NCBI GenBank assembly: GCA_905250025.1
Contig: CAJNOJ010000099.1
Coordinates: 62,001-126,000 of the forward strand
Direction: 5' to 3'
DNA length: 64,000 nt
Source of the DNA: Adineta ricciae
Lineage: Eukaryota > Rotifera > Eurotatoria > Adinetida > Adinetidae
Shown: piece by piece, positions 4,756 through 38,202 of the stretch
How the letters are laid out: the number at the start of each line of letters is the position of its first letter
Numbering within the stretch: the first letter of the stretch is position 1
Made by a program: the position numbers and the translations under genes
Notes under the pieces: generated by a model
Told to the model about the DNA's origin: nothing
Databases searched by the model: none
What the model saw: the letters and a program-made list of their open reading frames with translations, nothing else

Positions 4756-5934
4756 TTAGCTAGAAATATAGCAAGAGTTATATGATCCGTGTGAATCCAA
4801 CAAAAGAGGTGTTTTCAGCTTACCTGTTGATGCGGATTTGCATGATGGACTTTCAAGTAGTTTGAATCGTTGAATGCGATGATTTGTGCTGTCACACACA
4901 TAAAGATTTCCATCACGGTCGAATGCCAAATCAGTTGGATAACGAAGTTGCTCGGCGCCATCGCCCTCACCTATTATACTCAGTTTGTCAAATTAAGTCT
5001 ATCGACCACTCGTTTGTATGAAATATACATACCGCGTCCTCCAACAAGCGTATCACCGGCTAATGCAGCGGGAAGCCACCGTTGAATTCGATGATTTCTT
5101 TTATCAGCTATGTAGAGAATTTTTGTTACTTCATCCACTTGTATGTTCATCGGTTCGTAGAGAAGATCAGCAGAGCTTCCATCCTGACCGGCACGCGAAC
5201 CTGCCACAGTTGGACCTTCGTTAGCGCCCATACTCCATTTTTGAACGTGATTCTTCTTCAAATCAGCTACATACACCGTTTGTTTTATTTCATCAACATA
5301 AATTCCACGTGGCTCATCAAGATTTCCATCAGTAAGTCCCGGTTGCTGTTCATGACCAGCAACAACGATGGTCGTATTTGTTTGTGGCGACCATTGATAT
5401 ACACAAGCATCCGACGCAGATGATAAATAAACGTTCTTATTTTTATCCAATGAAATACTAGAACATGAACGGCATTTATGTGCAAGTTTTTCACCATGAG
5501 TTGCGCCTTCAATCCATTTTTCAGCATAATAAGATGTGAATGTTACTATGTAAATAATGGGCTTGTTACTACTGTCGTCTGTATCAACATAAATATCGAC
5601 TGGCATCCACCAACTACCAGATGCTACAGTCACACCTTCACCGCTGGAAGAAGCATCCAATGAAAATTTCTGAACACGTTGATTACTAAAATCGGCTACA
5701 TATAATGTATTTGTTAATTTGTGAATAAAAATGCTTTGTGGAGTATAAAGTTGATGGGATGAATTACCAGCTACCCCAGTTCCAGCTATAGTAACGCCTG
5801 TAGTACTCCATTTCGTACATGCAGTAGTTTGAGATCGTACAATTGGTGCACAAATCACTGGAATAAACAATATAAGAGAAATTTTGGCTCTGTTGCTCTA
5901 TTAACTCACGAATATAGAAAAGCAAAAATTGCAT
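4756..5934 (-). CDS. Secreted NHL-repeat beta-propeller protein
   Basis: Exon 1 is only 25 nt (5934-5910). Spliced over a 52-nt intron to 5857-5033, it creates the signal peptide MQFLLFYILICAPIVRS. A third exon begins at 4970. The body carries NHL-type blades (LYTPQSIFIHKLTNTLYVAD; LDEPRGIYVDEIKQTVYVAD; LYEPMNIQVDEVTKILYIAD; LRYPTDLAFDRDGNLYVCD), each ending in an N-x-R-(I/V)-Q-(K/R) strand. NHL propellers bind proteins or glycans; a secreted one of this kind has no assigned role. The third exon either reads through to a stop at 4758-4756 (355 codons in all) or splices at the good donor after 4824 to an unidentified exon. It lies in the same NHL/caspase cluster as its neighbours. Confidence 0.75.
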
Positions 5935-6134: not shown

Positions 6135-8195
6135 TTAGACTTCTTTTATGAGTATACCATAGGCTCGAATATTTTCTGGATGTTTAACAACCCATATGTT
6201 AGCATCACTAGTGAATTTTACATCATCAGGATTGACAGCGACTTGTAACATCATCTTGAATTTTTTCGATCCATCTGTAGTATCTAGTTTCACTTCCCCA
6301 GCATATCCATTTTCTACAAAATTCGGAATGGGTGAACAGTACACACCAGGCCCATGAAGAGCATTTGTTGCTTTGGTGAATCCGCTTTTATGAATAATAG
6401 AAGTAACATCAACAGCTGCTGAGTTTGGATCACCGCCATCGATAGGTTTTGCATTTTTCGTTCCATGAAAAGCTCTGTACCAGTTTTGCGGACTTCCAAA
6501 TGGATGTAACCATTGATCGTCCGCATATTTACCTAAAACCTTCAATCCATACCTTGTATAACCAACTGGAGAAGTGTATTCCTTAGTACGACCAACTGGC
6601 CCAACTTGATGTTTTTCTGGACTAGTAAAAGCTCTATCACCACATTCATCAAATTGAGCTATATCAAATGATGGTCGAAATAGTAGTGGATGAATTTTCG
6701 CAGCAACAAAATCTTTGAATTGTTCTTTTAGTTTTTTAGAGAGATCTGCCAACTTTTTAATAGCTTTCTGTGCCAAATGCTTGACAGTATAGACAATATT
6801 AAACGATCCGACATAAACAGCACTCAGAGTAATATCATTTTTCTGGATACCATGAGCGTTTGCCAATTTGCTAACTATATCATCAAGAATAGGGTGCGAA
6901 TCGTTGTGTTCGATTGCTTGTTCCAATGTTTTGATTACTCTCAGATCAAAATGCTCATCCTTTGAATCTCTGTAGTCAATGAATTGCTTGTTACTATTCA
7001 ACTTCAAAATTAATGGTTTGTCTTCAGTGCCAAGGTCAGCTAAATTAGCGGATGCATCGTGTAGTTTGACATCGTCTCGCGAATCAAAAAAGACACATTG
7101 TTGATTATTGCTCTCCATTAAATTACTTAAAGCATGATAGAGTGTATGCTTGTCTGCTGGATTACCCGATGGTTGCTTATTTAACAACGAATCTGTGAGT
7201 TCATCAGCTTTTTGCATGTCGGGTGTATTTCGATTGATAACATCATCAAGATTCGGATAGTTATCGTAACAGTCTCGCTGTTCTTCTTGTTTTTTCAAGA
7301 GAGCCGGTATTTCACTGTCGTCCAAATCAGCCCATTCTGAAAAATTCAAACGACAACGGTTATACCGTGGATACAAGAGAACTTCATACTCATAATTAGT
7401 AAACACTTACTTTGACGTTCAACTTCGTTTAGACAAATATCGTCGTGCCGACGCAATCCGTTGAGCACTAATGGTCGCTGTTTATTATTACTCTCTTTCT
7501 CTACATCTTTGGTAATTTGACGAAAAAGATCACGAATACTGACATTTTCTTCTTGAACATTATTAAGTAAATGCTTGGTGAATAGATTGTTCCGAGTTGA
7601 TTCATTCGTGCCGCAGGCACACTGTATGAATAAACCATCTATTTTTGTCAGTCGGGGAAGATTCTCAGATCCATTCGCAGCTAAAAACATTTAAAAAAGA
7701 TATCATAGTTCTCTGAACCTAAATCTAGAGATGGTACTTGCCGCCCAACGTCGCACTACTTTGCAATGAATAAGTTCCGCACGAATCCAAAATGAAGATA
7801 TTCACAAAAGATGTGTTCTTTTCGACAAAACGCTCGAGATTTCGTTCGAGATCGACAGAAAAATCGGCGACATCCGTTCTCTGTTCAATCATACCATCGC
7901 TAGCAGGTATAAGGTAGTGTTTGTCCTTGACCCGATAGCAATGGCCGAAATAATAGAATAAAACCAAATCGCCATCTTGAATCGTGTTAGCGAAATCGAT
8001 AATCGCCGTAGCCATGTCATGTTTCCCTTTGTTACAGACAGTCGTCACTTGAAAGCCAATCTGTTTAAGTACATTGCTGAAGCTATTCGCGTCCGCTCCA
8101 ACATTCTGAAGTCGATCCTCTGGTCGACTATAATCGCCATTACTTAAAATTAACGCAATTTTTCGGAACTGCTGTTTACCAGTCGAGTATGTCAT
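6135..8195 (-). CDS. Caspase-like (C14) domain fused to an ADP-ribosyltransferase/PARP-like domain
   Basis: Three exons: 8195-7742, 7680-7411 and 7336-6135 (1926 nt, 641 aa). Residues 1-230 are a C14 caspase-like fold: RKIALILSNGDYS start strand, catalytic His in YYFGHCYR (about His85) and Cys in FILDSCG (about Cys139). The first intron needs a GC-AG donor (GCAAGT) to keep frame; a GT donor 4 nt further breaks it. After a linker comes a C-terminal domain of about 110 aa with AFHGTKN (His532), GPGVYCSP (Tyr574) and HPENIRAYG (Glu629). This is the His-Tyr-Glu spacing of PARP-type ADP-ribosyltransferases. The upstream in-frame extension starts with TTG and looks non-coding, so the ATG at 8195 was chosen by comparison with the two paralogues. 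The PARP-like call rests on motif order only. Confidence 0.7.
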
Positions 8196-8567
8196 GTTCG
8201 TGTTATATTTAAAAGAAATGCATTCTCCGTCGCTCTTATTTATAATCGCTGACGTTGACGATCTTATTATTTTCTCCAATTGTTATGATCCCGAAAATAA
8301 ACATGAGCAAATGCATGTATGTTGGAAAAAAGTATAACTTTTAAGTATTCTTTCAAGCATAAAAAAAACAAATATCAGAAAGACGCAGAATAGAAGCTGC
8401 ATAAATTATTTTTTCTTTTGTGTAGATGTTTTCAGGCAATACAAAAACTGAAAGAGAACGCATGTACACAACAAAAAAATATTTGTTAAGTAGGTGATTT
8501 TAATCACTATGTCTTTTTTTAGAACTTGGGGAAAATATTCCCCTCATTATTTAAGATTTCGACACCT
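8196..8567. promoter_or_regulatory. Shared upstream region of two divergent caspase genes
   Basis: A 372-bp gap separates the start codons of the minus-strand caspase-ART gene (8195) and the plus-strand caspase-NHL gene (8568). Both promoters must lie here unless untranslated exons extend further. The sequence is A/T-rich with several poly-A and poly-T runs. No specific binding site can be named. Confidence 0.45.
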
Positions 8568-10342
8568 ATGGCACTTCTTCACAATGAATCGACTATCAAT
8601 CGACGATTAGCATTACTTATTGCTAACAGCAAATATGAACAACAAGAGAATAGACTTGATGGTTCTATCGCCAAAGCAACAGAACTAAATGTATTACTCA
8701 CAGATATGAATTTTGAAGTTACATTTCTTGAAAATGTTGAAAAAAGCGAAAAACTTTTGGAATGTGTGATCAGATTCTGCGAAACCATTCAGAACGACGA
8801 TTTTGTCCTAATCTTTATTTCTGGCCATGGCTGTCAAGTTGATGGCACAAATTATTTAATACCTACAATGGATAGATGTGTATCCAATGACAGAGATATA
8901 CAATGTCTTGGTACACCCATTGCAACGCTGTTCAAATGGCTCAAGCGTAAAAATATATTCCGTATGTGTGCTATGATTCTAGACTGTTGCAGACCATATA
9001 ATCTATCGAGCGACCAGTCTCCTTTCTGTAAGAAACACGTCATCGGTTTTTATTAATGTAATTACCGAATTGATTCGATAATTTAGGGAAAAAAGAAGGT
9101 TTAACCCAACTGAAAGCACCACCAAATATGTTGATTCAATTTGCATGCGCTGCTAATAAAACAACTACTAGTAATCTATATATGGAATATTTATTAAGAA
9201 ATATCGTTGAACCCGATGTTAAAATTATCGATATCTTCAAAAATGTTCGAGATGATGTCTATCGAGCATCATATAAAACACAAAAACCGTTCACCATGTA
9301 CACTTGGGATGAAGATGAAGAAGTCTTTCTGCGAGAATCGATACATTGTATGTATACCAGAATAAAAGTTCCGATTGAGTTTTTCCATTTTATTGCAGCT
9401 AGAAGCAATATACCAAGACATGCTCGATGGAATACAAAAGGCCGTTGCCTAGTTGGTAATCATAATAACTGTTGCAGCTCTGGTTCACTGTTAGATCAAC
9501 TGAATTGTCCTCGTGGTATATTTCTAACACCTAGTAAAGCTTTACTCGTTGCTGACTCACTGAATCATCGTATTATGAGATTCAAAAATGGTATAAAGGA
9601 AGGGCAAAGAGTAGCTGGTAGAAGTATTGCCGGTTATGGATATAACATGTTATGGGAACCTAAACACGTCATTTTCTATCAGCAGCAACGCAAGAAAAGC
9701 TATATCATCTGTGATACACATAACCGACGAGTTGTTCAAATGACGCTTGGCAAGAATAATAAAAGCTTCAAAACAATTATTAATGATATTGTATGTTCTG
9801 GCATCGCCGTGGACGAGGATGGATTTCTCTACATTTCTGATAGTGAATATCATGAAGTGAAACGATATTCGCCTACAGGACGCAGCCATAGCATCACGGT
9901 GGCTGGCGGTCATGGACAAGGTTCCCGTCCTAATCAACTCAATCATCCCACTTATCTTTTTATTGGCCTAGATAAATCGATATACGTTTCCGATTCGTGG
10001 AACAATCGCGTTGTGAAGTGGAAAAAAGGAGCGAAAGAAGGTATTGTTGTTGCTGGTGGCAATGGAAAAGGAAAAAATCTTAATCAATTGGATTGTCCTG
10101 CAGGAATAGCGGTTGACAGTTTTGGAACAGTGTATGTTGCTGATCACTGGAATCATCGCGTGATGCGCTGGCAAAAAAGTACTTCTCAGGGAGATCTGAT
10201 CATTGGCAATCCATTTAGGTCAGGAGACGGACCTAAGCAACTCAACAGCCCCGAAGGTTTAGTTTTCGATGACGGTGGTGCGCTCTATATAGCTGACTCG
10301 TATAATCATCGGATTCAAAAGTACGACATCCGTTCGCATTGA
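8568..10342 (+). CDS. Caspase-like (C14) domain fused to a six-blade NHL propeller
   Basis: Exons 8568-9027, 9087-9347 and 9399-10342 (1665 nt, 554 aa); introns are 59 and 51 nt. The N-terminal 235 residues are caspase-like: RRLALLIANSKYE, catalytic His in FISGHGCQV (His87) and the Cys in ILDCCRPY (Cys141), so the protease dyad is present. The last exon encodes six NHL blades, each with a PxG(I/L)-x-D-G-x-LYV(A/S)D-x-x-NHR(I/V) pattern, which is the number needed to close a propeller. The expected role is a cysteine protease with a ligand-binding or oligomer-controlling propeller in place of a death-fold adaptor. Start is the first ATG in frame with the caspase strand; the upstream extension has no ATG. 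Paralogue of the gene at 12550. Confidence 0.8.
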
Positions 10343-10486
10343 TAAGTGTTTTGTATGAGCTCTCGCTCTGTATATCAATAAAAAAAACTCACTTTCATCT
10401 AGTACATCTGCCTAAACAGGTTCAGTTCGGTATTGCGCATATTTTTCCATACGATCGAATCTTTTCTCTGGCTATACGAGTAAATA

Positions 10487-10789
10487 TCAGTATACGTATC
10501 TGATTCCTGCAATAATCATGTTGCAAAACGGGAAAACGGAGCAAAAGAAGGTGCCGTGGTAGCTGGTGGTAATGGGAAAGGAAAGAATCTCAATCAATTA
10601 GATTGTCCTGCCGGAATAGTAGTCGATCGATTTGGAACAGTGTATGTTGCTGGCCACTGGAATCACCGAGTGATGCGCTGGTGCAAAGGAGCTTCCGCAG
10701 GTGACACCGCTAGCCATCCGAATGGCCCCCATTGTCAAGGATTTGATGAGAATGGTAATCTATATGTAGCCGATTCTGACAACCATTGA
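10487..10789 (+). pseudogene. NHL-propeller fragment, partial duplicate of the upstream caspase-NHL gene
   Basis: In frame from about 10487 this stretch reads two and a half NHL blades (VAGGNGKGKNLNQLDCPAGI, NGNLYVADSDNH), ending at TGA. It matches the last blades of the gene ending 145 bp upstream almost word for word, including VAGGNGKGKNLNQLDCPAG. It has no start, no caspase part and a spoiled first strand. It is best read as a truncated tandem copy of that last exon, degenerate at both ends. Confidence 0.75.
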
Positions 10790-11022
10790 ATCCAATTATT
10801 TACTATCGAGCAAAACTGCTAGAATGAAATATATAGGCCCGGTCTATTGTTGAACATGAAGAAGTTGAAAGCGTATTCTATGAGCTGCCCGATGAGCATT
10901 TTTTCTAGTGACCTGTCTTTCCCTTTTATTCACTGTTTACTTTGCTTAAGAGTGATTTGCTCAAGTGTGACGTTTACTCATACCGTACAGCCTTTTGCTG
11001 TTCTCACACAATAAAACAAAGA

Positions 11023-12039
11023 TAAATGCACCCAATCAAAACAGTGAAGACTTCTATCGTTGGTGAAGATCTCAAAGATATTCTTCGCTATGATGATCCA
11101 GTTATTGAACATGTCGAAAATGATGAAGAAGAAAAAACTTAGTAATATCATTGCGAGTTTCTGATCAATGCAAGAGAAGAGTTATGAAAAGCACAATCGT
11201 GGATTGTGCGGCAACTCAAGCATTTGTCAAAGGTATATTAACTGTACCAGCCAATTCACCGCCTGATCTAAGTCAAGAGCTGTTTATGTATACAGGAACA
11301 TATTCGGTTATCCTTAGATATGCAAGCGAACTAACTCAAATCGAATATATTCGATTATCAGCATCGTGAGAAATAGCTATGAAATTTTCAATGCCACGGG
11401 AACATAATTACGAGAAGACGAAAATACTTTTTCTTCAATAATACTTCTGTACTTGAATTAACCAATGCTACAGTTTGCTGTGATACCCAACGGTCGCATA
11501 ATTAATATTCTGATGATCCGGAATGGTTAAAAAAAAGCGTTGAAAGAAAGAGATGATTCACATACAAATAATTAGAACGAACCAAACTACTCAATACAAA
11601 TATTATGGAACAAGAGGTGTATTCACAAGCAGCGTATCGTTGTGGTTATTGGATCGTCAAATATGCCCTCTTTCCAGTTACTAAAGAGCAGTTGGCGACA
11701 AAATTTCAAAAAGTCAAACAAGCTAATCCGTCAACAATTCTCAGCGATTGGATACGACAATATTTTCATGCACATGCAGCTAAATACGATTTTCGTGTTC
11801 AGTTTTTGCAGCGATATCAAGCTACAACTAGTTGAAGATGCAAGTGTCGTCGAATGGTCGCGACTTTGGATATTCCCGAACAAGATGCGTTCGATCGTCA
11901 ATTTTCTCAATGGTAGGAAGATGCTGTTCGACTATTCGCATGGGGTGATCTCCATGAACAGTGTCCACTGGGATCAATAAATCGTATTCGTGTACGATTA
12001 TATGATGCAAGCAGCTATTTTCGAGCAGAAAAGAATTAA
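11023..12039 (+). pseudogene. Catalase-superfamily (heme, catalase-like) pseudogene
   Basis: Pieces in different frames follow the order of a catalase-like protein. ATG at 11023 opens MHPIKTVKTSIVGED with LRYDDPVIEHVENDEEE. Then comes AFVKGILTVPANSPPDLSQE with the RYASE motif (matching the KG-x-L-T-V and RYS regions), then YSQAAYRCGYWIVKYAL, FRVQFLQRYQATTVEDASVVEW, and in another frame ATLDIPEQDAFDRQFSQW, an internal TAG, and GSINRIRVRLYDASSYFR to a stop at 12037-12039. At least two or three frame breaks and stops are present and no intron repairs them. The family (small catalase-like heme proteins known from bacteria and fungi) and the loss of function are both fairly clear; foreign origin is inference. 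Confidence 0.65.
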
Positions 12040-12549
12040 GAGCCAGTTACATTTACCGCAAAGTATCAGTGCAATATCTGGCTCGAAACATAAACCATAA
12101 AACACATGGGAGCTCTACCAAACTTTGTAATAAAGTCGGAGAATCCAATCTGTGAAAACCGTTAAATGACATATCATTTACATAGAAATACGTAATTATA
12201 TGGTATTTTACAGTGGCTCGCATAACCGCATATAGAAATATTTCTTCATACATTTTATGCAATGTAAATAAAAGAGAGTATTTCGAGTGTGCGTGTGCTC
12301 ATACTGAAACGACAAAGTACAAACTTCTGTTGACAAGAATGAAACATACAATAAAAAAATACTATCGAAGACGCCGTCTTTTCCCCTCACCATAATATTA
12401 ACACAACTATTTTTTCTGTGACACACTGCGTAGTCGCATTGCGACTAAAATAACAATTATTTCATTTCCCATAGATCCCGTGTGTGTCTTGCCTCCTTCA
12501 ATTAGCTGAATTTATAAGCTCTTCGATAAGCTGTAGATAAAGATACAAT
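12040..12549. other. Gene-free stretch upstream of the second caspase-NHL gene
   Basis: About 0.5 kb, AT-rich, with no recognisable coding. It contains a small perfect palindrome around 12433 (gtcgca-t-tgcgac). Presumably the promoter of the gene at 12550. Confidence 0.4.
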
Positions 12550-14330
12550 ATGGCAGCTACGGATGCATCTGTTACTCAACGTCGAAAACTAGCATTAATC
12601 ATCAGCAATGGTAATTATAAAAGAAAGAAAAATAGAATCGATGATTCTATGATGAATGGCAGAGAACTTATGGACTTGCTCAACACGATTGGTTTCGAAG
12701 TCACTCTAAAAGAAAATCTTTCTACAAGCACAGATATAATGGTTGAAGTTAAAAATTTTGCAGAAAAACTCAAGGAAAATGATATAGTTCTGTTCTATTA
12801 TTGTGGTCATGGTTGGCAAGTCGATCAACAAAACTATCTCATTCCCACTGATGATACTCGGTTGGACATGAACACTATTCTGAGTTTGGGTGTTCCTGTT
12901 AATCGAATACTCACTCGCTTGGTAAACGAAATAGGAGCTGATGAAACACCGCCGCATTTGGTTATCTTCATTCTTGATTGTGGTAGACCCTATAGACTGG
13001 AAAACAGAGAAAGATCTATCGGTATTTAATATTTTGTTTCCCTAAAGTTATGAGTAACTTTTCCTTTAGATCAAATTGTACAACCACAAGATTTCCATGA
13101 TATGGATGCACCTCGCGGAGTACTGATTCTATTTACGCGTGAACCGAATAGAACAATTGGCAATAATCTATTTGCGGAACGTTTACTTGGAAGTATTACG
13201 CAAAAAAACGTGACCGTTGTCGATCTGTTCCAACGCATAGCAGACGACGTGTATTGCATCAGTGAAGGAAAGCTCCAACCGTTTCTTAGGTACCAATTAG
13301 AAGGTTACGAAAATATATATTTAAATAGAACAATCTATTGTGCGTACAAAATGAAATGAATTCTTGAGGATTTTAAATGCAAATATTTTTCTTGCTTTTT
13401 ATTTTATTGTTTTTTTAAGTGAGGAAATGGAAATCTAAAGGTCGTACTATTGCTGGTGGTGCTGAAGATTGCAGCGGTCCTGGTTCTGCATTGAACCGAC
13501 TTAATTGTCCTCGAGGTCTGACATTCACTCCTAAACAAGCGATTATCATCGCTGATACTTCAAATCATCGTATTCTCAAATACAATCCCAATGATATTGT
13601 CGGTCAGAGAATCGTCGGTCAAAATATACCGGCTCATCATGACCGTGCGTTATGTGCGCCTACGAACGCTATTTTTCATGAGCAATTGAAGAGTTATATC
13701 ATTTGTGATTATCAAAATCGCCGTGTTTTGCAATGGATACGTAAGAGACATGCTCGTTCAAAAGTGTTGATTGAAAATATTGCTTGCTATGGCATAGCCA
13801 TTGATCACGAAGGACATGTCTACATTTCTGACACTGAAAAACATGAAGTTAGACGCTACAGTGATTTTTCAAAACGAGGTGTCCGTGTTGCCGGTGGCGA
13901 TGGGCCAGAAGACAGCCTTCATCAACTAAATCATCCAACATATTTGTGTGTTGACTCGGAGAAATCTGTGTATATATCAGATTCGTGGAACAACCGTGTA
14001 ATGAAATGGAAAAAAGGTGCAAGATCAGGTATAGTCGTAGCTGGTGGAAATGGTCGGGGAGACAGTTGTACGCAATTGGATTATCCCACCGGATTGGCTA
14101 TCGATCAATGGTGTAATCTTTATGTAGCTGACCACTGGAATCATCGGATCATGCGCTTTCGTGATGGAGCATTAACAGGTGATATTATCATTGGCAATAA
14201 ACATCTTCCAAGAGATGACCCACGCCAATTAAACGGTCCTGAAGGTTTACTAATTGATAATGATGGAAATATCTATGTCGCTGACACTTATAACCATCGC
14301 GTTCAGAGGTTCGATATCAAAATAGACTAA
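12550..14330 (+). CDS. Caspase-like/NHL propeller protein with lost catalytic Cys
   Basis: Exons 12550-13021, 13070-13339 and 13420-14330 (1653 nt, 550 aa), with the same phase-1 intron positions as its paralogue at 8568. The caspase fold is complete (RRKLALIISNGNYK; His87 in YYCGHGWQV), but the active-site segment reads FILDCGRPY. Gly145 stands where the paralogue has the nucleophile Cys (ILDCCRPY). The neighbouring Cys144 is the preceding, non-nucleophilic position. The C-terminal exon encodes six NHL blades with intact NHR motifs. The protein is otherwise intact, so it is likely a pseudo-caspase acting as binder or regulator rather than a dead gene. Start at the ATG of MAATDASVTQRR. Confidence 0.8.
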
Positions 14331-24541: not shown

Positions 24542-25629
24542 CTATTTTTTCCTTAAAACTAAGAGAGTCGCATAAGTTTTCAAATCTCTTTCGTCAATAG
24601 TCTCTTTGACTTTTTCCTCATATAACTGCCAGAATTGGATCGATATATCTTCGATATCTTGACTTGATCGTCCATTACTTTGCAAGGCTTGTTTGAATGC
24701 TAATTCCGTTCCTGGTCGCATCAGCATTGTTAATGATCTAGCGTATTGATCACGCGTTAGATGCCCATGTTGATATTGATTGCAAACCGCTGATTTCAAG
24801 CAAACAAATTCAACTTTGACTAATTTCAACGAATGCCGATGGAATAATTCGAAATCAACACATTCCGACAGAGAACGTAAATAAAACGGGATAGTAAAAT
24901 GTAATAATTCATCGGATGTCAACAATGAGAGTAATTGAGCACATTGGTATATGAGATCAAAATGTGCATCAAAGTCCATGTCACCATTGTCGCCTACACA
25001 TGGAATATTCAATAGAAGAATCCCACCGGAGATCAATTCTCGCGAACGACAGGCAAGAAATGCATCCAGATCAAATTTCGATTGCTTTTGAAAGATTTTA
25101 CGTTCAGTAGGAGTGGCAAATCGAAAATAGCAGTGCTTAGCCAAATGACAAGGCTTTCGTGAAAGATAATGTAATGCAGCCGATGAAAAACCAATCGAAA
25201 TACTCTTGTCAGGAAAGCATTGTTCGTAGAAGGAACGACCCATAGCATAACCATAATAAGGATTCTCGTTGATAAGAAGCTGAAACATCTTTGACCAATT
25301 ATTTGTTGGTACATCTATATGAACGACGAAAGGTGTTCCGACGAATTTATTTGTTTGACGAAGATATTCAAGAATCGATTTCATCGTCTGAATAGAAGTT
25401 CTTCCATGAGAAGAACCGAAATCAGCAATAATAAAACTAGCAGCAGAACGTGAACTATGCAGCGCACTAATACCAGCATGAATCAACGATTGAATTGGAT
25501 CGTCGGATTTTGAATGAGCAATGACTTTTGTTCGTCGAAAGTTACAGCAAGCATACAAATAATGACGGAAATCTATGAAGATACATTAAAATATGTACTT
25601 GTATGAAGAGATTCGATATTCATACCCAT
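24542..25629 (-). CDS. SABATH-type SAM-dependent carboxyl methyltransferase
   Basis: The main exon 25572-24542 has no ATG near its start. A 53-nt intron (25625-25573) would splice it to a 4-nt coding exon ATGG, giving 344 aa beginning MDFRHYLYACCNF. The SAM-binding loop reads FIIADFGSSHG. Further family landmarks are HIDVPTNNWSKMF, FYEQCFPDKSISIGFSSAAL and HYLSRKPCH, matching the plant and microbial salicylate/jasmonate/theobromine methyltransferase family, which methylates carboxylates or amines of small molecules. Such genes are uncommon in animals, so transfer from a non-animal source is a reasonable inference. The start exon is inferred from splice signals only; the rest is well supported. 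Confidence 0.75.
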
Positions 25630-36379: not shown

Positions 36380-38107
36380 TCATTGCGGTGATGTTTTGCC
36401 GACATACTTGCCTTTTTTCCAGTATCCTAGTTTTCTACGGCCATCTGCAAAAGTTAACCGACCATAACCATGCATTTTTCCATTCAAAAACGCACCATCA
36501 TATTGACTACCACTGATCCAGACGAACACTCCATCACCACTCATTTTGTCATTGAACCAAGCACCAGCATATATGCTGCCACTTTTGTAGGTATAAGTGC
36601 CGTAGCCATGTTTTCTGTCATTGTCAAATTTCCCATCATAGAAATCACCATTTTTCCACCTTCGTTTTCCCCAACCTTGTGCTTTTCCATCTACGTAATC
36701 ACCTTTGTACTCATCACCGTCGTTAGAGTAAAATCTGCCAACAGCGTTTGGTTTTCCGTTTTCATGAAATCCTTCATAGCAAGTTCCGTTCGACCACATA
36801 CTTTTTCCATGACCGTAAGGTCTCCCAAGCAACCAGTTGCCTTCATAAACATAACCGCCACTACGGTAGAAAATGCCAAATTTCTGCATTCTACCACGCT
36901 CAAAATTTCCTTCATATCGATCACCATTGGAACATATCCAAACGCCCTTCCCTGTAGCTCGACTTTCAGCTTCATAGCCTTTGTACACCATTCCATCAAC
37001 ACTGGTATATTTGGCAAATCCATCTCTCTTACCATTTACCTGACTAACTTCATATATACCACCAGTCATAAATTTGATAGTCGAGATCACTCTGTTGTCT
37101 TCGTGTTTATTGTCTCTGTCGACTAATAATAAAAGAGATCGTAACATTTCAAAAGGAAATCCATGAATACCTGAGAAAGAAGACTTGCTTCTTGCAGTAT
37201 TTTCTGACGGTCGATATAAAACTGTACCATTATGCAAACCTTGATAAATTAATCAGTTTATTTGGTATAGTCGTAGAGGTAAGAAAAAATCTGGCTGTGT
37301 AACGACCGATATCAACAGTCGACAATTGAATTCATCGATAGTCCTGCTCATGTCTTCAACATAGTTTTAATACTCACTTATATCGTTTCTCGGCAACAAT
37401 CTTTGCGGTGAAATAGATTTATCAACTGACTGCGATGTTTCAGAGATGTCGGGGCAGATTTCTTTTAAAGATAACCGGGAAACGCTGTTTGTGTAAGAAT
37501 CGATAATGACGGTTTTAATTAATAGCCGTGTGCCTGGACATAGTAGTACTTCGTCCTCACCCGTATTAGCTGTAAAATTGCGTACATTCTTGCCGTTCAA
37601 AACTTCTATTGAACAAAGGCATAGGTTTTCATCGATTAGCTGTCTGATAAAACTGCTTGAGTATGAGCATGAACTAAAGTTCCACCAACTTATCTCTCTA
37701 TTCTTGTAGATTTTATTGGCAATATCTTTACGCATAGCACGGAAAAACACACCTTTAACAGACGGAAGTTTTTCCAAAGCAGTATTCAGTAATTTAAGAA
37801 AACCAAACCAAGGCGCAATCGAACCATATCTATCTGACGTTATTGTCTGATTTAACAGGTTATGTAAACTTTGTTCGCCCCATTCACTTGTGTAAAGATA
37901 TATAGCAGCGGATTCATCACCTGTGAGCTTGTATTGTGAGAAATGGTGACGTTTGGTTTCGGCCGTTTTCATGTGTTGGTGTAATCCTTCGACGGAAAGA
38001 ACCAAAGACTCGAGAGCTATTCCAAGCGGCAGAAGAGGTTGCTTCCTATAATACTGATAAAACAATGGTTCTCGTTCATTGTAGTATTCTTGAATAAACC
38101 GGCTCAT
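36380..38107 (-). CDS. Arginine-type mono-ADP-ribosyltransferase fused to eight MORN repeats
   Basis: Exon 1 38107-37378 and exon 2 37239-36380 (1590 nt, 529 aa), joined by a 137-nt intron with a strong GTGAGT donor. Residues 1-245 are an R-S-ExE ADP-ribosyltransferase: Arg123 in GVFFRAMRKDI, the Ser motif in WWNFSSCSYS (145-148) and GEDEVLLCPGTR with Glu184 and Glu186. It is like animal ARTC and the many bdelloid ART genes. The second exon encodes eight MORN units (RYEGNF, VYEGNW, CYEGFH, EYKGDY, FYDGKF, IYAGAW, QYDGAF and a weaker first), which bind membranes or lipids. No signal peptide is visible, so a cytoplasmic, membrane-recruited enzyme is likely. Separate genes are possible, but phase and splice sites support the fusion. 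Confidence 0.8.
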
Positions 38108-38202
38108 ATATTTCTTACGACAAAAATAGTGTATGTTTGTTGCTAGAGAGAATGAATTTTAAACAGTGGAGTTTTGTTAAATAGTCACATTTTTTTATTG
38201 AC

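What the first reader, a model, noticed from the sequence alone, without database searches (positions are those of the whole stretch)
6135..14330. Caspase module with exchangeable last exon: NHL propeller or ADP-ribosyltransferase
Three caspase-like genes share a two-exon protease module whose exon boundaries are at the same places and all in phase 1. Exon 3 is a six-blade NHL propeller in two copies and a PARP-like His-Tyr-Glu domain in the third. A phase-1 boundary between protease and effector exon is ideal for exon shuffling. Caspase-NHL and caspase-ART fusions are not standard animal caspase architectures. The set may form an innate-immune or cell-death module, which is inference.
Basis: partly seen in the sequence, partly recalled or inferred. 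Interest (0 to 1): 0.9.

Follow-up and report, generated by a model that had tools for sequence, protein, structure and literature searches.

The report
Paracaspase genes with swappable last exon
In a bdelloid rotifer, a family of caspase-like genes keeps the same two protease exons but carries different last exons (a propeller, an ADP-ribosyltransferase or a coiled coil), a mix-and-match design better known from bacterial conflict systems than from animal caspases.

Summary
The organism is Adineta ricciae: the model of gene A equals its NCBI protein P0001, 641 aa. Genes A, B and C share a two-exon C14 protease module; both introns of each gene are phase 1 at matching places. Exon 3 of B and C is a six-blade NHL propeller. 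Exon 3 of A ends in a PARP-like ADP-ribosyltransferase with His-Tyr-Ile, not His-Tyr-Glu.

It is not a local oddity. I classified 19 such module genes in this genome, with four kinds of last exon (ART1, NHL, coiled coil, a second ART) or none. The module-ART fusion is annotated in three further bdelloid species. NHL exons without a caspase also start in phase 1 (17 of 18 scored).

New points: the module of B is nearest MALT1 by sequence. The catalytic dyad is incomplete in 11 of 25 module rows, gene C among them. All five ART1 genes stand head-to-head with a second module gene.

Exon shuffling is supported. An immune or cell-death role remains inference, and published expression data give mixed, mostly unfavourable signals. 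C14 expansion in bdelloids is in print; these architectures appeared in no paper that my searches listed.

The parts
7742..8195 (-). Gene A exon 1: start codon and first part of the C14 protease module (His in FGHC, Cys in DSC)
   Evidence: splicing; PF00656 1.3e-16; dyad
7411..7680 (-). Gene A exon 2: second part of the protease module, phase 1 at both ends; intron 1 is GC-AG
   Evidence: same splice choice as NCBI protein P0001
6135..7336 (-). Gene A exon 3: helical part, alpha/beta part and C-terminal PARP-like ART
6138..6659 (-). ART domain of gene A (exon-3 residues 226-399); H290 at 6465-6467, Y332 at 6339-6341, third position I380 at 6195-6197
   Evidence: PARP fold; H 62/62, Y 62/62, third position I/V/Y/T/L, never E; that position set by motif
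6660..7334 (-). N-terminal 225 residues of exon 3: helical part plus an alpha/beta domain (ferredoxin/SEA-like arrangement, weak) with a conserved G-S hairpin
8196..8567 (.). 372 bp between the start codons of genes A and B (head-to-head)
8568..9027 (+). Gene B exon 1: C14 protease module with complete His/Cys dyad (SGHG, DCCR)
9087..9347 (+). Gene B exon 2, phase 1 at both ends
9399..10342 (+). Gene B exon 3: six-blade NHL propeller; preceding intron 9348-9398 is 51 nt and has no stop
12550..13021 (+). Gene C exon 1: C14 protease module, Cys nucleophile replaced by Gly (DCG)
13070..13339 (+). Gene C exon 2, phase 1 at both ends
13420..14330 (+). Gene C exon 3: six-blade NHL propeller

Best explanation
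A lineage-specific family of paracaspase-like genes is built as a constant two-exon protease module (both introns phase 1) plus one exchangeable phase-1 last exon. SHOWN by sequence: the layout, its recurrence, four kinds of last exon, repeated loss of catalytic residues, and the head-to-head pairing of all five ART1 genes found here. INFERRED: last exons were exchanged by recombination in the second intron. The module works as an activation or dimerisation switch, as a protease where the dyad is intact and as a pseudo-protease scaffold where it is not. The last exon supplies the output or aiming part: a mono-ADP-ribosyltransferase in gene A, a ligand- or RNA-binding propeller in B and C. The likeliest working order is that binding through a partner assembles the modules, intact members cleave themselves or a neighbour, and the ART domain is thereby placed or released to modify its targets.
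For: Splicing and phases. Gene A equals NCBI protein P0001 and the C180b gene equals P0028; module-ART fusions are annotated in three other bdelloid species. Genome survey of exon-3 kinds. Module tree and AU tests. NHL exon tree: C453 NHL exons group with NHL exons lacking a caspase (98/94), apart from the other five (100/98). Phase-1 acceptor in 14 of 14 fetched caspase-NHL genes and 17 of 18 other NHL genes scored. PARP fold; two weaker relatives of the exon on contig C197 (E 5e-12 and 2e-11) reach the PF00644 cut-off. dN/dS below 1: 0.03-0.62 for the module in 7 of 7 pairs, 0.08-0.38 for exon 3 in 4 of 4. In both ART pairs exon 3 is the more constrained part (0.24 against 0.51; 0.19 against 0.56). 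Incomplete dyads in 11 of 25 module rows, against 2 of 24 scored other rows.
Confidence: 0.6

Rival explanations
1. The fusions are gene-prediction artefacts: a caspase gene happens to sit upstream of an independent NHL or ART gene.
For: The NHL unit and the exon-3 ART unit also occur without the module; no RNA was seen here.
Against: Intron 2 of B has no stop, so exons 2 and 3 are one ORF. A phase-1 junction at the same place was found in 13 genes by script, over introns of 50-486 nt, and three other bdelloid species have the module-ART fusion annotated. NHL exons start at a splice acceptor.
Confidence: 0.05
2. Each architecture arose once by an ordinary fusion and was then copied; there is no continuing exon exchange.
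For: AU tests do not reject one origin of ART1 (p 0.11), of the five core NHL genes (0.20) or of the coiled coil (0.37); the five core NHL exons form one clade (100/98).
Against: Four exon kinds within one clade still need at least three changes. The C453 NHL genes need a separate one (p 0.0003). NHL also occurs in a distinct three-exon caspase clade and close behind ART and B-box-like parts.
Confidence: 0.3
3. A degenerating family: module genes are losing protease function and the last exons carry the remaining use, so no proteolytic mechanism need be sought.
For: The dyad is incomplete in 11 of 25 module rows; dN/dS of the module is higher than that of exon 3 in both ART pairs; one C561 ART exon carries a stop.
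Against: Intact dyads persist in 14 of 25 rows, including A and B. dN/dS of the module stays below 1 even in dead pairs (0.19 for C140/C112; 0.51 and 0.62 for the C180 pairs; no significance test). The Asp before the Cys is invariant in the 15 rows. In both NHL pairs the module is the more constrained part.
Confidence: 0.2
4. One reading: an innate-immune or cell-death module in which caspase and ART are the executors.
For: ART, caspase and propeller domains are recurrent parts of conflict systems (PMC8195603, PMC7159879, passages). C14, NHL and ART domains are numerous in this genome. A metacaspase match and a caspase-like match are among genes upregulated against a fungus (PMC11258130, passages).
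Against: Few C14 genes changed on fungal challenge, mostly downwards (PMC11258130). Bdelloid authors argue that apoptosis is unlikely (PMC10809525). Many members lack the nucleophile.
Confidence: 0.3

Closest known systems
MALT1 paracaspase (C14)
   Same: All 10 distinct solved sequences that match gene B's module at E <= 0.01 are MALT1; His and Cys of B align with GHG and DMC of MALT1
   Different: No Pfam death or Ig domain was reported in the scanned exons; C-terminal NHL or ART instead; nucleophile often lost
Bacterial EACC1 systems
   Same: A constant N-terminal caspase with up to 50 alternative C-terminal domains (PMC7159879, passages)
   Different: Animal genes with introns, exchange at a phase-1 intron; the EACC1 partner gene was not looked for
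Oyster DED-TRADD-N expansions
   Same: A constant N-terminal part with PARP14-like ART or WD40 propeller at the C-terminus (PMC8195603, passages)
   Different: Here the constant part is a C14 protease and the propeller is NHL
Bdelloid Peptidase_C14 expansion
   Same: The same domain family: 101 and 69 proteins in A. vaga and A. ricciae (PMC11258130, passages)
   Different: The passages read give no fused partners; the words NHL and ADP-ribosyl do not occur in its main text
Mono-ADP-ribosylating PARPs (PARP10, 14, 15, 16)
   Different: Below Pfam detection in gene A; own 225-residue N-terminal part
TRIM-NHL proteins
   Same: C-terminal six-blade NHL propeller
   Different: No Pfam RING or B-box in B and C; protease module instead

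Membership tests
Peptidase C14 (caspase superfamily) | Pfam PF00656 over the curated cut-off | tested here: met
   Exon 1 of A, B, C: 61.5, 54.3, 62.3 bits against 21.4
Peptidase C14 (caspase superfamily) | His/Cys catalytic dyad, genes A and B | tested here: met
   GHC/DSC and GHG/DCC
Peptidase C14 (caspase superfamily) | His/Cys catalytic dyad, gene C | tested here: not met
   GHG/DCG; Cys replaced by Gly
MALT1-type paracaspase | Nearest solved structure by sequence | tested here: met
   10 of 10 sequences at E <= 0.01, best 1e-06, tested for gene B only
MALT1-type paracaspase | Death domain and Ig domains | tested here: not met
   None reported at E <= 0.1 in Pfam scans of the exon frames of A, B, C
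Animal caspase (C14A) | QACxG active-site pentapeptide and CARD/DED prodomain (recalled definition) | tested here: not met
   Active site reads DSCG, DCCR, DCGR; no prodomain hit
PARP / ARTD | PARP catalytic fold | tested here: met
PARP / ARTD | Pfam PF00644 cut-off for gene A exon 3 | tested here: not met
   No PF00644 match at E <= 10; 3 of 62 aligned members match at E <= 1, best 4.1e-4, below the cut-off
PARP / ARTD | His and Tyr of the triad | tested here: met
   62 of 62 each
PARP / ARTD, polymerising type | Glu at the third triad position | tested here: not met
   I 51, V 7, Y 2, T 1, L 1 of 62; position set by motif
Arginine ART (PF01129) | Pfam match of gene A exon 3 | tested here: not met
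   No match at E <= 10
NHL propeller | PF01436 over cut-off, six blades | tested here: met
   110 and 121 bits against 20; six motifs each
TRIM-NHL | RING and B-box | tested here: not met
   None reported in B or C
Bacterial EACC1 system | Partner gene with EACC1 transmembrane domain | not tested
   Not searched for
TRADD-N | TRADD-N fold of the middle part of exon 3 | tested here: inconclusive
SEA domain | SEA fold and a self-cleaving G-S hairpin | tested here: inconclusive

The most novel reading that the evidence does not exclude
An animal counterpart of bacterial variable-effector caspase systems: an ADP-ribosyltransferase executor carried on a paracaspase, kept head-to-head with a second, often catalytically dead paracaspase that acts as its sensor or restraint, with both partners diversified by swapping phase-1 last exons.
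Probability: 0.2. Interest if true: 0.88.

Novelty: new variant of a known kind. Interest (0 to 1): 0.62.

Why it matters
A constant caspase with many alternative C-terminal domains is described for bacteria, chiefly multicellular ones (PMC7159879, passages). Finding the same logic in an animal, with the exchange point visible as a phase-1 intron, lets exon shuffling and the recruitment of effectors to a caspase fold be studied directly. The repeated loss of the nucleophile offers natural separation-of-function alleles: what does a caspase-ART protein do when the caspase cannot cut? In animals whose authors report no p53 and argue that apoptosis is unlikely after radiation or desiccation (PMC10809525, passages), that bears on what caspases are for besides death.

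Tried and rejected
Sequence-only detection of the ART in gene A: Pfam at E <= 10 and PDB with the single exon or a 62-row profile gave nothing relevant. Only the fold comparison and a related domain (L039; 16 of 17 PDB rows PARPs, best E 0.029) did, besides the C197 link to PF00644.

A search for wider partners of the module by protein similarity was thin: 3 proteins and 16 (where only the 7997 candidates sharing most words were scored). The absence of caspase-NHL proteins of other species from those lists is not evidence of absence.

The middle part of exon 3 as TRADD-N or SEA: not decided. Foldseek's top rows there (dystrophin complex E 0.048, eIF2) are weak. The weak Erf4 (12 of 62 members) and Globin (4 of 62) matches were set aside. 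The same scan saw C14 in 10 of 62 members at E <= 1; 7 of the 62 have it precomputed, the other three were not looked into.

Automatic splice choice failed for genes B and C of the window (already spliced), chose a wrong intron 1 for C453a/b (corrected), a wrong second acceptor for C303 and wrong sites for the four coiled-coil genes. The C303 acceptor and the four coiled-coil junctions (phase 1) I read by eye from the printed DNA; these are less certain. For C561b ART the intron-1 acceptor chosen is weak. The C561 NHL gene needs no intron 1, since its frame is open. In one search two of 20 other NHL loci had no anchor and were dropped; in three of the 32 scored (L002, L081, L092) the NHL frame is only 155-161 aa and the site lies inside the propeller. 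Without those three the count is 29 of 29 phase 1, and the one exception (L081) is among them. L059 had no data at the Cys column. In the tree the one- and three-exon caspases are matched segments strung together, not spliced models. L028, L064 and L069 gave no module hit and were not followed; L070-L072 gave fragments and were left out. Of 81 C14 matches (counted exon by exon) only those within the loci were classified. A further module gene on C561 (start 45069) is cut off by the contig end before its last exon and is not among the 19.

Papers: searches (bdelloid+caspase+NHL repeat; bdelloid+immune+expansion+NHL; NHL repeat+caspase domain+domain architecture) found 0 papers; one (rotifer+caspase+ADP-ribosyltransferase) found 1, seen by title and start of abstract. 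Searches were seen as listings, some of them only the top rows (20 of 33, 25 of 205, 10 of 12, 8 of 598 in 36, 70, 73, 84). I read passages of PMC11258130, PMC8195603, PMC7159879, PMC10809525, PMC12220480 and PMC3846280. No paper was read whole and no supplement was seen.
Full report
What is there. The window is contig C99:62001-126000 of a 130-Mb assembly held as G000. The spliced model of gene A (641 aa) equals an NCBI protein of Adineta ricciae, P0001, letter for letter, so the species is that bdelloid rotifer. Genes A (minus strand), B and C (plus strand) each have a two-exon C14 protease module followed by one last exon. All six introns are phase 1 and 48-80 nt long. Intron 1 of A uses a GC donor, and the NCBI model made the same choice. 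Intron 2 of B has no stop, so exons 2 and 3 of B are one open frame.

The protease. Pfam C14 is far over its cut-off in exon 1 of all three genes. Against the solved structures the module of B matches only MALT1 at E <= 0.01 (10 of 10 distinct sequences, best 1e-06), with SGHG opposite AGHG and DCCR opposite DMCR. The nucleophile is therefore the second Cys of DCC. On that basis A (DSC) and B (DCC) keep the dyad and C (DCG) does not. Over 25 module rows (19 A. ricciae, 6 other bdelloid proteins) 11 lack Cys or His; over 25 other C14 rows 2 do and 1 has no data. Parsimony needs at least four state changes within the module rows. Fisher's p of 0.008 ignores relatedness and is only descriptive.

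Recurrence. In this genome I classified 19 module genes, counting A, B and C: five with the ART1 exon (A; C180 twice; C561 twice), seven with NHL (B; C; C364; C329; C561; C453 twice), four with a short coiled coil (C180 twice; C140; C112), one with a different ART exon (C303) and two with no further exon found (C290 twice). A twentieth, on C561, runs off its contig. Intron 1 is phase 1 in 18 of the 19; the C561 NHL gene has none. Intron 2 is phase 1 in 13 of 13 genes spliced by script and in the four coiled-coil genes read by eye. A sixth ART1-type exon on C611 has no module in the 1.4 kb held in front of it. Several of these are near-copies on the same contig, so they are not all independent. 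Of 120 listed relatives of A's exon 3 (129 found) eight carry PF00656, A itself among them: A. ricciae 2, A. vaga 4, A. steineri 1, Rotaria socialis 1. Others carry the exon with a SAM domain (P0005), a ubiquitin domain (P0079) or no recognised partner, also in the foraminiferan Reticulomyxa.

Exon exchange. In the module tree the 21 core rows (ART1 11, NHL 5, coiled coil 4, second ART 1) form one clade with 100/99 support (100/98). Four kinds in one clade need at least three changes. The seven two-exon NHL genes as one clade are rejected (AU p 0.0003). One origin is not rejected for the five core NHL genes (0.20), ART1 (0.11), ART1 plus the second ART (0.28) or the coiled coil (0.37). Genes B, C and the C561 NHL gene are long branches, so their places are unsure; one intronless caspase (C238) falls beside C453. 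In the NHL exon tree the five core exons are one clade (100/98), while the C453 exons sit with NHL exons that have no caspase (98/94). A separate clade of three-exon caspases also carries NHL (10 of its 11 rows). The best-scoring acceptor of the NHL exon, chosen without regard to phase, is phase 1 in 14 of 14 fetched caspase-NHL genes and 17 of 18 other NHL genes. Those others are the 20 fetched, chosen among 218 matches, less two without an anchor; paralogy makes the counts dependent. The parts upstream of those other NHL exons include an arginine-type ART (PF01129 3.4e-9 in L084, 48 bp from the NHL frame), pentapeptide repeats and a weak B-box-like match (E 0.0013); that they belong to one gene was not tested. 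So the last exon is the portable unit, and the module is one of several partners. Penelope elements copying an intron-bearing gene in A. vaga (PMC3846280, passages) are one possible agent; nothing here tests it.

Selection. In near-copy pairs dN/dS is below 1 for the module (seven pairs, 0.03-0.62) and for exon 3 (four, 0.08-0.38; one of them over the first 250 codons). In both ART pairs exon 3 is more constrained than the module (0.24 against 0.51; 0.19 against 0.56); in both NHL pairs it is less so (0.38 against 0.30; 0.08 against 0.03). No significance test was made.

Pairing. Each of the five ART1 genes in this genome lies head-to-head with a second module gene. The start codons are separated by 372 bp in the window (A/B), 394 and 422 bp at the two C180 sites, 280 bp at one C561 site and 303 bp at the other. 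The partner is NHL or coiled coil (cut off at the second C561 site). Its dyad is complete in B and incomplete at the four other sites. The C180 and C561 sites are duplicated segments, so this is three independent settings at most. Tandem inverted duplication could explain it without function.

How it most likely works. Shown: layout, recurrence, loss of catalytic residues, pairing. Inferred: the module assembles or cuts, the last exon acts or aims. The nearest working analogy is the bacterial EACC1 system, where authors propose that a constant caspase is activated and deploys variable C-terminal effectors by self-cleavage (PMC7159879, passages). In a related bacterial setting they report that about 70% of effector-position caspases are inactive and may be regulators or peptide binders (same passages), which resembles the losses here. 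Against an inducible immune role: in A. ricciae few of 69 C14 proteins changed on fungal challenge, mostly downwards; for it, a metacaspase match and a caspase-like match were among upregulated genes of foreign origin (PMC11258130). Against classical apoptosis: PMC10809525, which also reports many PARP genes raised after radiation, so a stress role is open.

Novelty. C14 and NHL expansions in bdelloids are in print (PMC11258130; PMC3846280). I saw no paper on caspase-NHL or caspase-ART fusions in bdelloids in the listings of searches, which cover open-licence PMC papers only and were partly capped. Fused proteins such as P0001 and P0028 are already in NCBI as unnamed or hypothetical. I rate this a new variant of a known kind.

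Noticed in passing
window 10484-10789 (+): Partial NHL copy behind gene B; 10486-10695 is 80% identical to 9976-10185. No protease module between it and gene B; probably a decayed duplicate.
   Followed up: partly
window 4980-5897 (-): A divergent NHL frame with a signal-peptide-like start lies just downstream of gene A; end branch 3.78 in the NHL tree.
   Followed up: partly
window 24542-25585 (-): SAM-dependent carboxyl methyltransferase (PF03492, 3.7e-34), a family I recall from plants; possible horizontal gene transfer.
   Followed up: no
window 37367-38158 (-): Arginine-type ART (PF01129, 9.5e-6) in the same window.
   Followed up: no
L084 942-1676 and 1-894 (-): Arginine-type ART frame about 48 bp before an NHL frame with a phase-1 acceptor: a possible ART-NHL fusion.
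   Followed up: partly
L025 (contig C99:33684-35417): A PARP-like ART domain lies about 0.7 kb before an intronless C14 gene on the same strand; whether they are one gene is unknown.
   Followed up: no
P0121: An A. ricciae protein of 633 aa that reads as two C14 modules in a row; gene or annotation fusion unknown.
   Followed up: no
G000 genome: Very many ART domains: 152 PF00644 matches and 150 PF01129 matches (the 150 of 553 candidates that were scored), counted exon by exon.
   Followed up: no
L035 (contig C611): ART1-type exon without a protease module in the 1.4 kb before it; 1409 bases of the locus read N.
   Followed up: no
exon 3 of gene A, residues 174-184 (window 6783-6815): G-S between two strands (G 56, S 48 of 62), recalling the self-cleavage hairpin of SEA domains (recalled); unexplained.
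   Followed up: no
P0108, P0113, P0119: Relatives of the ART1 exon in the foraminiferan Reticulomyxa filosa: ancient family or gene transfer.
   Followed up: no
P0123: An A. ricciae protein of 156 aa, 88% identical to gene A over 24% of its length, on a 5-kb contig; perhaps an allele missing from this assembly.
   Followed up: no
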